In this document: positions 4,113-15,600 of the stretch, one piece after another | How the letters are laid out: every line of letters begins with the position of its first letter | How positions within the stretch are numbered: position 1 is the stretch's first letter | Assembly (NCBI GenBank): GCA_021808055.1 | Contig: JAKBCH010000025.1 | Location: 1-28,185, forward strand | DNA: 28,185 nt | Source of the DNA: Pseudomonadota bacterium | GTDB lineage: Bacteria; Pseudomonadota; Alphaproteobacteria; Acetobacterales; Acetobacteraceae | Reading direction: 5' to 3' | Position numbers and translations under genes: made by a program | The notes under the pieces: generated by a model | Databases searched by the model: none | What the model was told of the DNA's origin: nothing | What the model saw: only the letters and a program-made list of their open reading frames with translations

Positions 4113-4290
4113 TGCCACCTCCAACGGCGGGGTTTATCTCTGGCAGCACCAGCGTATTCACACCCTGCAAAACCGGGTCGGAAAGATTATTCGCCTGGGC
4201 AATTCTTATCCATTGCGTCGCATCTTGAAGATACTGCGCTGCCAGGGAGAACAGGTTTCCGCCTGCCACTACAATAATCCTGCGATTCAT
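4102..4290 (-). CDS. Tail protein X with a single LysM domain
   Basis: A 62-residue protein from ATG 4290, overlapping the gpU-like gene's stop as ATGA. Nearly all of it is one LysM-type module: IIVVAGGNLFSLAAQYLQDA, then TQWIRIAQANNL, then VLQGVNTLVLPE. Small LysM proteins of this kind (P2 gpX, Mu-like tail X) sit beside gpU/gpD and are thought to stabilise the hub or contact peptidoglycan. A longer frame upstream to 4371 is only the shadow of the neighbour's 3' end. Confidence 0.85.
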   Translation of the reverse strand: MNRRIIVVAGGNLFSLAAQYLQDATQWIRIAQANNLSDPVLQGVNTLVLPEINPAVGGGIAS

Positions 4291-4985
4291 GGTAACTCCA
4301 ACCCGAGATTTGTCGCCGCCCGGTTCACATAACCAGACATTCCAGAAAGTCCGGCCAATTGCGCTGTGCAACTGCCAATCTGCCCCAATGCAGCAATGCC
4401 CATCGTTGGTGTAACCGCATTGTTCAAAACAGATGCCACTCCCGTCAGCGTACCACCGCTCGTCGCCATTGCATCGGAGATTTCGCCCTGCACAACACCC
4501 AACGCCGCCAGGCTCGCGCCCGTCAGGCCCATGGCTGAAATCCCCGCCTGTCCACTCAGTGCTGATGCCGCCGCCAAATCACCGGAGATCAAATTCGCGA
4601 CAGGCGCCACGACATTCACAGAAGCTGAAAGCGGGTCGGTCACCACCACACATTTAATCGTAAACGGAATCAGATTCGGCTTGCGGTACTCAGCGCTAAA
4701 CCCGGCAATCACGACAAGATAATAAAACCCCTGCCATACCAGCGGCAGCTGTGCGCCCAACGCCCGCGCCGTATCCAAAAGCTGCGCGCGAGAGGCCGCG
4801 TCAGATCCCGAAAAAATTCCGGAAAACGAAATCTCTCCATCGTCAATGCCCAGCGCTTCAACAATCCGTCCGCCACCGATGATATTCTGCACCGCTAGGC
4901 GCTGCTTGCCACCGAAGCTGATCTTTTCCGGCACCTCCATGTCACGAAAGGCCACATCACCCAGCGAAAGTACGACACTGCTCAT
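4287..4985 (-). CDS. gpU-like tail/baseplate protein with an Ala/Gly-rich C-terminal extension
   Basis: A 232-residue protein. ATG 4985 is chosen because the -1 frame of the chaperone gene ends TGA at 4989-4987, giving TGAGATG. Residues 1-117 have the strand pattern of P2 gpU (F..MEVPEKISFGGKQRLAV; ALGIDDGEISFSGIFSG; LPLVWQGFYYLVVIAGFSAEY; IPFTIKCVVVTD), seen by eye from memory. P2 gpU sits at the tail tip or baseplate. Residues 118-232 are low-complexity Ala/Gly/Ser/Leu, probably helical and mildly hydrophobic. The gene occupies the place where a tape-measure gene would be expected after the chaperone. Whether the extension substitutes for a tape measure is speculation. Confidence 0.7.
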   Translation of the reverse strand: MSSVVLSLGDVAFRDMEVPEKISFGGKQRLAVQNIIGGGRIVEALGIDDGEISFSGIFSGSDAASRAQLLDTARALGAQLPLVWQGFYYLVVIAGFSAEYRKPNLIPFTIKCVVVTDPLSASVNVVAPVANLISGDLAAASALSGQAGISAMGLTGASLAALGVVQGEISDAMATSGGTLTGVASVLNNAVTPTMGIAALGQIGSCTAQLAGLSGMSGYVNRAATNLGLELP

Positions 4986-4986
4986 C

Positions 4987-5160
4987 TCATTCGCTCCAGC
5001 AAAGCTTCGTCCAATCAAACGCGTGACCTTCAAGCGTTCCCATTGCCACTATGAACGCCAGCCGCTCCGCCTCGTCCAAATCAAATGCTACTTCGTAAGG
5101 CACCCCGCACCGCACCAGATACAAACAATCCGTAAGGGCAGGGTGCCGGCTTAGTTTCCC
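4987..5160 (-). CDS. -1 frame extension of the tail assembly chaperone (E'/GT-type, made by frameshift)
   Basis: In the -1 frame relative to the chaperone ORF, reading is open from GGG at 5160 through to TGA at 4989-4987. After the slip it adds 55 residues that begin LSRHPALTDCLY, include VPYEVAFDLDEAERLAFIVA and end in AFDWTKLCWSE. The fused product would be 156 residues. There is no ribosome-binding site or ATG at the start of this frame, so it is expected only as a fusion to the upstream 101-residue protein. P2 E/E' and lambda G/GT use the same arrangement; there the extended form binds the tape measure and recruits tube protein. The frame stops one base before the next gene. Confidence 0.82.
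   Translation of the reverse strand, partial: GKLSRHPALTDCLYLVRCGVPYEVAFDLDEAERLAFIVAMGTLEGHAFDWTKLCWSE
5099..5160 (-). promoter_or_regulatory. Programmed -1 ribosomal frameshift signal (slippery heptamer plus stem)
   Basis: The heptamer GGGAAAC lies at 5160-5154 in the phase G GGA AAC of the chaperone frame, directly before its TAA (5153-5151). After a 6-nt spacer a 10-bp stem can form: GGCACCCTGC at 5147-5138 with GCGGGGTGCC at 5108-5099, one G-U pair and a 29-nt loop. Heptamer type, spacer and stem all fit a standard -1 signal. Confidence 0.85.
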
Positions 5161-5456
5161 GCTTCAGCGGCCAGGTCGCGTTCCTCGTTTTCCATCAGCG
5201 CCTCGCCCACGGCATCAACGCCTTGCTCGCCCAACCGCTCCAGCGCTGCTTCAATCGCCTTCTCATGGGCCGGGAAGGGCAGGGGCACGCCATCCACCAT
5301 CGCCACGGCAGCCGCCACCCGCGCCAGGCCCATATAGGCCCGGTTTTCTGAAAGCTCCGGCCCCAGCGCCTTAAACAATTTTAGCTGCTCCAGCACGCCC
5401 ACGCGCCGCAGCTCCAGCACCCGCCCGGCTTTGTCCGTCACACTTTGCGGCATCAT
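5151..5456 (-). CDS. Tail assembly chaperone, short form (P2 gpE / lambda gpG type)
   Basis: A 101-residue, acidic, helical protein beginning MMPQSVTDKAGRVLELRR (the second ATG at 5453 could also serve). It overlaps the tail-tube stop (TAATGATG). Size, position just after the tube gene, and the -1 frameshift site at its last codons identify it as the tail assembly chaperone. In relatives the short and frameshifted forms together keep the tape measure soluble and load tube subunits. Here the usual next gene, the tape measure, is missing. Confidence 0.85.
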   Translation of the reverse strand: MMPQSVTDKAGRVLELRRVGVLEQLKLFKALGPELSENRAYMGLARVAAAVAMVDGVPLPFPAHEKAIEAALERLGEQGVDAVGEALMENEERDLAAEAGN

Positions 5457-5884
5457 TACACTTTCGTCCGCGTCGAAGCATAAAAGTCCAGCTTCTGCGC
5501 GACCGCCGCATCGCCTTTATACGATCCTGCAGATGTCAGCTTGAACACCACATTGTTGAACTGATAGGTCGAGGTCGACCCATTCGGCTCATTCACATAC
5601 TGGTATAGCGTTCCACCATTAATCGCCTGGCCATTATGGTAAGCCGCCTCAATCTGCGCGATGAAATCATCCACCGCGGAAGATCCTCTGTCCAGCGCGA
5701 AACTTCCGTTCCAGCCTTTCGGCAGCTCAGCCGCAAGCTGCACGCCGTCCAACCGATCAACCCGCAATGGCTGCGTCACCTGGCTTGCCTCAAACCCGGT
5801 CACATGCGCCAAATCCACGCGCCCAAACGGGCCCATCACCACAATCTGGCAATCACTGCCAACAGTGAATGTATTAAACGGCAT
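5456..5884 (-). CDS. Contractile tail tube protein
   Basis: A 142-residue protein from ATG 5884, following the sheath gene by 17 nt. Size and place (sheath, tube, chaperone) are those of the contractile tube protein. The sequence is beta-rich: VGSDCQIVVMGPFGRVDL, then WNGSFALDRGSSAVDDF with IAQIEAAYHNGQ, then YQYVNEPNGSTSTYQFNNVV and KLDFYASTR at the end. It should stack as hexameric rings inside the sheath and form the DNA channel. Confidence 0.9.
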   Translation of the reverse strand: MPFNTFTVGSDCQIVVMGPFGRVDLAHVTGFEASQVTQPLRVDRLDGVQLAAELPKGWNGSFALDRGSSAVDDFIAQIEAAYHNGQAINGGTLYQYVNEPNGSTSTYQFNNVVFKLTSAGSYKGDAAVAQKLDFYASTRTKV

Positions 5885-5901: not shown

Positions 5902-7455
5902 TCAAGCAGTTGCTGGCACGGTCTGGCTGCTCACCTGCACCGTCTGCCCGCCCTGAACATTCACAATGAATTTCTCGTTAATCGCCTGATACTGCACCTG
6001 CACATCCGCCTGCACATAGCCCAGGCCGGTGCGGCTGACGGGATTGTTGCTGGCATCGCACACCACAGCAAATGGCACGCTGCCATTGGTGCTACCCAGC
6101 ATCCCCTGCTGCAACAAGCCATTTAAAAAGGCCAGCAGTGTCGCGCGAATATTCTGAAACAACGTTGAATTTACCAGTTGCCCCACATACCCGCCCATGC
6201 CTGCCTGCAACGTCGCGGCAATGTAGTTGGTCAACCGCGTATAATTGTCACCATTCACCGCGGCAGAGGACGAACTGTTATGCCCACCTCGCACACCCCA
6301 GTAGGCCCCGCCCGGCTGCGGGTTGGCAATCACGTCAATCCCTGCACTCAACAGCGCGCTCAAATCCGCGCTGGCGTAAGAGGTCGCCGTCGCCCCGCCT
6401 GGCTGGCCAGATTTCTGCGTGCCCACCACCCCATAAAGCGGCTTGTTCAAGGATGATTGCTCAGGCGACAAATTCGCCAGCCGCCCCGCCACAAACCCTT
6501 GCGGCGAAACCAGCCGGGTCATCGCATTGGTCTGGTCAAACCAATACACCCAATCGCCAAACAGCATCTTGGCAGCGTAGGAATCAATCCCCGCCTCACC
6601 CTTCACAATCACCGCATTTTCAATTGTGTCGCCCGCCGGGCCGGTCAAAATCATATAAACGCTTTCGGAGAGGCCAAACTCCATCTGCACGCTCCACTGC
6701 GTGGCATCGTCGGTATCGGCCAACAGCGCAATCGCACAACCCTGGCTGCGCAGCGCATACATGCCCCGGCGCGGTAGCACATCGCTGCCCACCAACGCAG
6801 CCGCATTCACTCCATTCGCGCCATCGCTACCCGGTGTGCCGGAAGCAAACAAATACACCCCGGCCACCGGTGCTGCCTGAACAGATTGTGCTGTGGCAAC
6901 CACAAGCTGCGAAGGCCCGCGCAACACGCCATTCCCAACATTCACCGCATCGGCAATATTTTGCCAAAACAGCGCTCCAGTTCCGATTATGTTATCAAAC
7001 ACCTCCGGACTCTGCCCAGGCAGCGCAATCGTCAGCCGCCAGCTATTGGCGGCGGAACCGGCGGAAAATGTCAGCGTCAGATCATTACCTGTGCTGCCTG
7101 TATAAATCGCCGTAAACGTAACCGCCCCCAGCACGGAAAGGCTGGCCGCCGTATCGCTTCCATCCGTTACGAGAACACAACGGAAGTTCGCGGCCCCTTG
7201 CTGTACGGCGGTCGCCACCTGCGTGCCCATGTCATATTTGCGCGCCATCACCGGGCCAAATGCAGCGGCATAATCGCTCATGCTGCCAATCACCGTGGGT
7301 TCGCCAACAGGCCCCCAGCTCGCCGTGCCAACAACACCCAAAACATCCGTCGGCACGCCGTTCAGCAGTAAACTCTGCGGCGGCACAATCTGCACGTAAA
7401 GATCAGGCACCACCAGCGCGGTGGTGTTGATCGCGCCTTGTTGTACAATCGGCAT
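5902..7455 (-). CDS. Contractile tail sheath protein
   Basis: A 517-residue protein from ATG 7455. The N-terminus (VVPDLYVQIVPPQS, then VLGVVGTASWGPVGEPTVI) is the standard sheath opening, followed by FGPVMARKYDMGTQVATAV. A middle beta domain (FTAIYTGSTGNDLTLTF) and the C-terminal domain (GGAYWGVRGGHNSSSS; YTRLTNYIAATL; TGLGYVQADVQVQYQAI; KFIVNVQGG) are also typical of the Mu/P2 sheath family. The sheath polymer contracts to drive the tube through the envelope. Its presence rules out a siphovirus-type tail such as that of the Rhodobacter gene transfer agent. Confidence 0.95.
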   Translation of the reverse strand: MPIVQQGAINTTALVVPDLYVQIVPPQSLLLNGVPTDVLGVVGTASWGPVGEPTVIGSMSDYAAAFGPVMARKYDMGTQVATAVQQGAANFRCVLVTDGSDTAASLSVLGAVTFTAIYTGSTGNDLTLTFSAGSAANSWRLTIALPGQSPEVFDNIIGTGALFWQNIADAVNVGNGVLRGPSQLVVATAQSVQAAPVAGVYLFASGTPGSDGANGVNAAALVGSDVLPRRGMYALRSQGCAIALLADTDDATQWSVQMEFGLSESVYMILTGPAGDTIENAVIVKGEAGIDSYAAKMLFGDWVYWFDQTNAMTRLVSPQGFVAGRLANLSPEQSSLNKPLYGVVGTQKSGQPGGATATSYASADLSALLSAGIDVIANPQPGGAYWGVRGGHNSSSSAAVNGDNYTRLTNYIAATLQAGMGGYVGQLVNSTLFQNIRATLLAFLNGLLQQGMLGSTNGSVPFAVVCDASNNPVSRTGLGYVQADVQVQYQAINEKFIVNVQGGQTVQVSSQTVPATA

Positions 7456-15261: not shown

Positions 15262-15269
15262 AGCTGTAT
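15253..15269. promoter_or_regulatory. Operator O3: half-site TGTTAG overlapping the repressor start
   Basis: The left arm TGTTAG is complete but the right arm is poor (CTGTAT). It covers the -10 region of the plus-strand promoter and the first bases of the repressor gene, so it could mediate autorepression at high repressor level. Confidence 0.5.
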
Positions 15270-15600
15270 GGGATCTAAAAAACAGCTACCCGCAGAAACC
15301 GTTGGCGCCCGAATCCGGGCGTTGCGCCTTGCCGCCGGCATGACCCAGGATGAATTTGCGGACAGGCTTAACGTCTCCCGCTCCGCCATCGCCCAGTGGG
15401 AGACCGACCGTGCCGGGCAGATCCGGGAAAACATGGAAAAAATCGCGAAGATTCTAAATACTTCGCTGGGTTACCTGGTTTCTGGTGAAACCGGCTCCCT
15501 GCTGGGGGACGAGCTTGCCCTCATGCGGCTTTATCGGGCCTGTTCAACGGAAGATCGTCGAATGCTGCTGCTCACCGCCCGCCGTCTGGCACGTAGCTAA
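15268..15600 (+). CDS. XRE/Cro-CI family phage repressor
   Basis: A 110-residue protein from ATG 15268. Residues about 12-60 form a standard Cro/CI helix-turn-helix (VGARIRALRLAAGMTQDEFA, then DRLNVSRSAIAQWETDRAG). A short C-terminal part (LLGDELALMRLYRACSTEDR) may dimerise it; there is no LexA/CI-type peptidase domain, so induction would not work by RecA-stimulated self-cleavage. It diverges from the virion operon and likely binds the TGTTAG/CTAACA sites between them. Its stop codon is one base from the stop of the convergent glycosyltransferase gene, so the prophage meets chromosomal genes here with no visible spacer. Confidence 0.88.
   Translation: MGSKKQLPAETVGARIRALRLAAGMTQDEFADRLNVSRSAIAQWETDRAGQIRENMEKIAKILNTSLGYLVSGETGSLLGDELALMRLYRACSTEDRRMLLLTARRLARS

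What the first reader, a model, noticed from the sequence alone, without database searches (positions are those of the whole stretch)
4987..5456. Complete -1 frameshift cassette in the tail assembly chaperone
The short chaperone ORF ends G GGA AAC TAA. The heptamer GGGAAAC (5160-5154) is in the exact phase for a -1 slip. A 6-nt spacer is followed by a 10-bp stem (5147-5138 with 5108-5099, one G-U). The -1 frame is then open for 55 codons and stops one base before the next gene. Lambda G/GT and P2 E/E' are known to use -1 slips here; the stop codon placed directly behind the heptamer, with the stem beginning 3 nt after it, is an unusually compact form.
Basis: partly seen in the sequence, partly recalled or inferred. 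Interest (0 to 1): 0.75.

Follow-up and report, generated by a model that had tools for sequence, protein, structure and literature searches.

The report
Phage tail chaperone frameshift cassette
A prophage tail gene ends in a slip site, a stop codon and an RNA hairpin that should let some ribosomes change reading frame and make a longer chaperone protein; the trick is known from other phages, but this tightly packed form is shared by a wide group of related phages and is a good test case for what a stop codon beside a slip site does.

Summary
Confirmed, and stronger than first claimed. On the minus strand a 101-aa ORF behind the tail-tube gene ends G GGA AAC TAA; three nt later a 10-bp stem begins, and the -1 frame runs 55 codons to one base before the next gene. 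Relatives were collected by tail-tube homology, not by the cassette. Of 313 loci examined (window included), 307 carry an in-phase X XXA AAN heptamer and in 290 a 0-frame stop abuts it. Named hosts include Acetobacteraceae, Pantoea, Aquitalea and Paraburkholderia. The stem covaries: pair 15-59 is C-G, A-U, G-C or G-U in 211 of 215 distinct sequences. The -1 frame evolves as protein (pN/pS 0.24). The predicted fold of the 0-frame protein resembles tail assembly chaperones, with modest scores. Best explanation: a lambda G/GT-like chaperone made by programmed -1 frameshifting. Unusual are the stop touching the heptamer (15 nt away in lambda, 18 in P2), the nearly exclusive AAC/AAA second codon, and the stem 6 nt on, a layout like some plant RNA viruses. 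No fusion protein has been measured.

The parts
5151..5456 (-). 0-frame tail assembly chaperone ORF (gpG-like, 101 aa, ends ...EAGN)
   Evidence: 91 homologs, 87 ending AGN; PHROG 20383, unknown function, E 6.3e-17; AlphaFold2 pLDDT 93, fold nearest to known chaperones with modest scores
5154..5160 (-). slippery heptamer G GGA AAC, in phase for a -1 slip
   Evidence: X XXA AAN in 307 of 313 loci examined
5151..5153 (-). 0-frame stop TAA directly abutting the heptamer
   Evidence: a stop abuts in 290 of 307 loci
5138..5147 (-). 5' arm of the stem (starts 6 nt after the heptamer)
5099..5108 (-). 3' arm of the stem
   Evidence: Gly and Val codons nearly frozen here in 134 distinct sequences
4987..5154 (-). 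-1 frame extension (T-like domain, 55 codons, stop TGA 4989-4987)
   Evidence: 11 invariant residues in 61 aligned representatives; pN/pS 0.24; AlphaFold2 pLDDT 92
5456..5884 (-). upstream gene, tail tube protein by position (142 aa)
   Evidence: PHROG 12993, unknown function, E 8.2e-40; bait for the relatives
5902..7455 (-). contractile tail sheath gene
   Evidence: PHROG 23 tail sheath E 3.6e-47
4287..4985 (-). gene after the extension (232 aa, in the place where a tape measure is expected)
   Evidence: PHROG 21362 and 36820, unknown function

Best explanation
This is a programmed -1 ribosomal frameshift that makes two tail assembly chaperones from one gene in a contractile-tailed prophage. 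Most ribosomes read GGA AAC and terminate at the abutting stop, giving the 101-aa G-like protein. Some, held by the hairpin 6 nt downstream, slip one base back on G GGA AAC and read 55 more codons, giving a 156-aa GT-like protein. By analogy with lambda, the G part would coat the tape measure and the T part would recruit tail tube subunits. Shown by sequence: heptamer, stop, stem, conserved -1 protein. Predicted: a chaperone-like fold. Inferred: that slippage happens, its rate, the roles in assembly, and that the abutting stop gives a clean G end and perhaps adds a pause.
Against: No protein or reporter evidence. No sequence similarity to P2, lambda or Mu proteins by hhalign; Pfam and NCBIfam give no chaperone match. 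Fold matches are weak: one BFVD hit under E 0.001, itself unnamed; Gemini chaperone E 0.011, Mu E 0.13; T4-like baseplate hub proteins also listed. The part of the module inside the window has no recognisable long tape measure. 17 of 307 loci lack the abutting stop. L329 has no X XXA AAN heptamer and no stem that I can see. L401, L404, L406, L407 and L408 form 4 or fewer of six core pairs. The window's own stem is only moderately better than synonymous recodings (31 of 1000). The sequences are related, which inflates all counts.
Confidence: 0.95

Rival explanations
1. The -1 ORF is a separate small gene, initiated on its own behind the chaperone gene, with no frameshift.
For: phiKX1 is annotated so, the second gene starting at an internal ATG, and Pantoea sp. 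Lij88 lists a small gene there. Val17 GTG is invariant in 134 of 134 distinct sequences of the first set and could in principle be a start codon.
Against: No ATG, GTG or TTG lies between the upstream -1 stop and the conserved His in 141 of 160 loci, the window included. Residues before Val17 are conserved with synonymous changes. An independent gene does not explain the in-phase heptamer, the abutting stop or the covarying stem.
Confidence: 0.02
2. Transcriptional slippage on the A-run, not ribosomal slippage, makes the frame change.
For: Many relatives have A AAA AAC or A AAA AAA, runs of six or seven A.
Against: The window and 121 of 215 distinct sequences have GGGAAAC with only three A. A downstream RNA stem and an abutting stop are not expected for it (inference).
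Confidence: 0.02
3. The frameshift is real but the abutting stop has no function of its own; it is where the 0-frame ends and is inherited because the -1 codons keep it.
For: 17 of 307 loci lack it and have the stop 1-13 codons later. The family is related by descent. For BYDV full-length RNA, stop-to-sense had no such effect (PMC4737148, section 16).
Against: The stop is kept through three stop codons and several -1 residue pairs (LS 113, LA 26, LT 15 of 160), whereas comparable pairs elsewhere make such a stop in 165 of 827. Where the stem is weak or gone (L401, L404, L406-L408) the abutting stop stays. [quoted passage not shown]
Confidence: 0.4

Closest known systems
Phage lambda G/GT tail assembly chaperone frameshift
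   Same: Gene position after the tube gene; G GGA AAN heptamer near the end of the first ORF; -1 frame C-terminal extension (PMC5009743, passages)
   Different: Lambda uses G GGA AAG with the stop 15 nt further; here the second codon is AAC, the stop abuts and a covarying stem follows. No sequence similarity found
Phage P2 E/E'
   Same: Contractile-tail phage; annotated -1 shift near the ORF end; extension of nearly the same size
   Different: T TTT TTG, stop 18 nt further; no sequence similarity found
Phage Mu gp41/FS-gp41
   Same: Order sheath, tube, chaperone; fold match at rank 15 in BFVD, E 0.13
   Different: Annotated as a -2 shift and followed by a long tape measure
Luteovirus/dianthovirus/umbravirus -1 cassettes (BYDV, RCNMV, GRV)
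   Same: Stop codon immediately after the slippery site and a structure about 5 nt downstream (PMC4737148, section 16)
   Different: Plant RNA viruses making polymerase; unrelated. A resemblance in layout, not kinship
Haloarchaeal virus HCTV-1/-2 chaperone shift sites
   Same: G_GGA_AAC and A_AAA_AAC heptamers in g-t expression (PMC5009743, passages)
   Different: Stop position and stem there not examined; the source paper is not held

Membership tests
Tail assembly chaperone expressed by programmed -1 frameshift (lambda G/GT type) | Lies directly behind the major tail tube gene | tested here: met
   sheath 5902-7455, tube by position 5456-5884, then this ORF
Tail assembly chaperone expressed by programmed -1 frameshift (lambda G/GT type) | In-phase slippery heptamer near the end of the first ORF | tested here: met
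Tail assembly chaperone expressed by programmed -1 frameshift (lambda G/GT type) | -1 frame extension conserved as protein | tested here: met
   pN/pS 0.24; 61-sequence alignment
Tail assembly chaperone expressed by programmed -1 frameshift (lambda G/GT type) | Chaperone fold | tested here: inconclusive
   known chaperones are among the best hits, but scores are modest
Tail assembly chaperone expressed by programmed -1 frameshift (lambda G/GT type) | Sequence homology to a named chaperone family | tested here: inconclusive
   none by Pfam, NCBIfam, or hhalign to single P2, lambda and Mu proteins
Tail assembly chaperone expressed by programmed -1 frameshift (lambda G/GT type) | Followed by a tape measure gene | tested here: inconclusive
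   window: 232-aa gene of unknown PHROG family; phiKX1: 742-aa gene with weak tape-measure PHROG matches (best E 1.3e-06) after a 171-aa gene
Tail assembly chaperone expressed by programmed -1 frameshift (lambda G/GT type) | Fusion protein made at a fixed ratio and required for tails | not testable with these tools
   needs reporter, mass spectrometry, mutants
Stop-abutting -1 cassette as in BYDV/RCNMV (layout only) | Stop directly after the heptamer and a structure 5-6 nt downstream | tested here: met
   comparison from PMC4737148, section 16
Stop-abutting -1 cassette as in BYDV/RCNMV (layout only) | Stop codon contributes to slippage | not testable with these tools
   inference only

The most novel reading that the evidence does not exclude
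These phages use a termination-assisted -1 shift: with AAC in the P site and the stop in the A site, slow release-factor decoding and the hairpin favour slippage of the E- and P-site tRNAs. That would explain why a bacterial system keeps AAC/AAA second codons, reported as much less slippery than A_AAA_AAG in E. coli, and why the stop is kept through all three stop codons even in a clade where the stem has decayed. The GT:G ratio would then respond to release-factor supply.
Probability: 0.3. Interest if true: 0.72.

Novelty: new variant of a known kind. Interest (0 to 1): 0.55.

Why it matters
It proposes functions for two PHROG families listed as unknown (20383 as the chaperone, 12993 as the tube by position), and supplies 215 distinct natural versions of one frameshift cassette: a natural experiment on what a stop codon beside a slippery site does in bacteria. 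In the records looked at, the fusion is not annotated: phiKX1 lists the extension as a separate small gene, and of seven plasmid stretches one lists a small gene there and six list none (that gene table is incomplete).

Tried and rejected
Pfam, PHROGs and NCBIfam scans of the 0-frame protein and the extension gave no chaperone name. PDB sequence searches with both profiles gave only matches at E 0.3 or worse. The single-sequence viral scan with the chaperone found nothing. No genome is held for this window. Shine-Dalgarno-like stimulator upstream of the heptamer: 72 of 134 have a match of 4 bases or more, and 72 of 134 in a control stretch; rejected. A pseudoknot was not modelled; synonymous use outside the stem is mostly near background. 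Stop readthrough: 144 of 160 loci have another 0-frame stop within 50 codons and the conserved protein lies in the -1 frame; rejected. Comparators for stop distance: of four phages fetched, lambda and P2 gave a near-end X XXY YYZ heptamer; my scan found none near the end in HK97 (annotated -1) or Mu (annotated -2).

Print: searches listed no title about a frameshift in this family. The paper on the phiKX1 genome, PMC8566455, has no 'frameshift' or 'chaperone' in its main text (find and passages only). Most subscription papers are not held; Xu et al. 2004 is known to me only from the reference list of PMC5009743 and from recall.

Limits of the counts. One search kept 80 of 92 relatives, 80 of 405, both the best by score. 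Dropped: L002, L074, L308, L323 (contig ends inside the ORF), L329 (no X XXA AAN in the last 20 codons), L396 (no chaperone beside the tube fragment). One search printed 156 abutting of 160; two of these (L117 CCCGGGC, L152 AAATTTT) I reassigned to the GGGAAAC/GGGAAAT upstream, leaving 154. In one search the heptamer in L288-L438 was the last GGG/AAA + AAA match in the final 20 codons, which favours that form; searches list all X XXY YYZ candidates. Some loci are overlapping pieces of one contig (L108 and L312), so the 215 distinct 64-nt sequences are the safer count. One search used 61 of the 69 representatives listed.

Full report
What is there. On the minus strand a contractile tail module runs sheath (7455-5902), tube by position (5884-5456), a 101-aa ORF (5456-5151), then a 232-aa gene from 4985. 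The 101-aa ORF ends GCG GGA AAC TAA. The local fold is -29 kcal/mol, z -3.04. By itself this is suggestive only: GGGAAAC occurs twice in the window against 3.4 expected, and 31 of 1000 synonymous recodings fold as well.

Relatives chosen without reference to the cassette. With the tube protein as bait, 80 bacterial contigs (of 92 relatives) and 80 viral contigs (of 405) were fetched, plus phiKX1. With the window this makes 162 loci, 2 of them cut short. In 160 of 160 there is an in-phase heptamer at or near the end of the chaperone ORF, and in 154 the 0-frame stop abuts it (140 GGGAAAC, 13 AAAAAAC, 1 AAAAAAA; TGA 113, TAG 24, TAA 17). The exceptions are L051, L059 and L117 (stop 6 codons later), L109 and L115 (1 codon later), and L152 (GGGAAAT TTT TAA). 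Independently, 87 of 91 database homologs of the ORF end in Ala-Gly-Asn although the residues just before vary; three more have AGN followed by one to six residues, and one does not have it.

Reach. Tube homologs on plasmids of Pantoea, Aquitalea, Paraburkholderia and Rhodovastum and further viral contigs extend this to Beta- and Gammaproteobacteria. Of 313 loci in all, 4 are cut short, L396 has no chaperone beside the tube fragment, and L329 has only CCCTTTG. The other 307 have X XXA AAN, and 290 of them an abutting stop. In distinct 64-nt sequences it is 204 of 215, with TGA 110, TAG 63 and TAA 31. The 17 without it have the stop 1-13 codons on; L309-L311 among them keep AAAAAAC and a stem shifted by about one base. 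In all 215 the residues Gly-x-Pro fall at the same distance from the heptamer, so the register never changes.

The stem is RNA structure. In 134 distinct sequences of the first set the Gly and Val codons of the 3' arm are GGG in 130 and GTG in 134, and His of the 5' arm is CAC in 127, far above background use, while Pro18 just outside varies freely. With the protein fixed, the median z of the fold is -2.8, and 83 of 134 are matched by at most 1 of 100 recodings. When the stem changes, both arms change: where base 15 is A, codon 3 is mostly AAC and codon 17 is GTT in 37 of 38; where it is G, codon 17 is mostly GTC or GTT; and L120, L123, L127 and L130 have a C-G to G-C swap with a synonymous GGG to GGC. 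By named record the pair is C-G in Acetobacteraceae, A-U in Pantoea and Aquitalea, G-C in Paraburkholderia. Pair 15-59 forms in 211 of 215 in four types, pair 18-56 in 206 of 215. Over eight core pairs 94.8% of cells pair, against at most 89.5% in 500 shuffles and 56.7% when slid. Relatedness inflates such counts. Against: L401, L404, L406, L407 and L408 form 4 or fewer of six core pairs at this place, L407 one, yet keep heptamer and abutting stop.

The -1 frame is protein. In codons 20-47 pN/pS is 0.24, as in the chaperone ORF (0.24), while the other frames give 1.37 and 2.18. In 141 of 160 loci no start codon lies between the upstream -1 stop and the conserved His, so independent initiation is unlikely, although phiKX1 is annotated that way. 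The extension is 54-68 aa, 55-57 in 130 of 158, and an [FY][DNE][WFY] motif lies in its last 35 residues in 158 of 158.

What is different. The distance from heptamer to stop is 0, against 15 nt in lambda and 18 in P2 and a mean of 26 nt in a phage training set (PMC10885494, passages). The second slippery codon is AAC in 132 of 134 distinct sequences of the first set, and AAC or AAA in 213 of 215 overall. [quoted passage not shown] haloarchaeal HCTV viruses also use AAC. In luteo-, diantho- and umbraviruses the stop lies immediately or 3 nt after the slippery site at the base of the stem; [quoted passage not shown] The same paper argues that a release-factor pause would come too late to help directly and suggests ribosome stacking (passage). 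So whether the stop acts here by E/P-site slippage, by queueing, or only by giving a clean G terminus stays open.

Verdict. It is a new variant of a known kind: a wide, well-conserved, stop-abutting -1 cassette in a chaperone family that PHROGs lists as unknown. Nothing here measures frameshifting.

Noticed in passing
window 4985-4287(-): The gene where a tape measure is expected is only 232 aa (PHROG 21362/36820, unknown). In L075 a 631-aa gene carries the same domain at residues 385-627, and phiKX1 has a 742-aa gene with weak tape-measure matches, so the window group may have a very short or displaced tape measure.
   Followed up: partly
L001:5354-5533 (phiKX1, LC644975): The -1 extension is annotated as a separate hypothetical gene from an internal ATG; no fusion is annotated.
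   Followed up: yes
L401, L404, L406, L407, L408: A clade keeps A AAA AAC/A with an abutting TAG but has a weak stem, or none, at this place.
   Followed up: partly
L329:2938-3480 (Rhodovastum plasmid RHOApd): Chaperone and -1 extension are present, but the only in-phase heptamer near the end is CCCTTTG and I see no stem; the shift site may have been replaced.
   Followed up: partly
window 4371-4102(-): 89-aa LysM protein that matches the C-terminal part (258-318) of PHROG 21362, whose N-terminal part matches the preceding 232-aa gene: a gene split or fusion within the family.
   Followed up: no
L330, L437, L438 (Pantoea megaplasmids): Relatives of this tail module sit on large Pantoea plasmids typed rep_cluster_1232.
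   Followed up: no
window 15268-15600(+): 110-aa ORF, by eye a helix-turn-helix repressor-like protein, facing away from the late genes.
   Followed up: no
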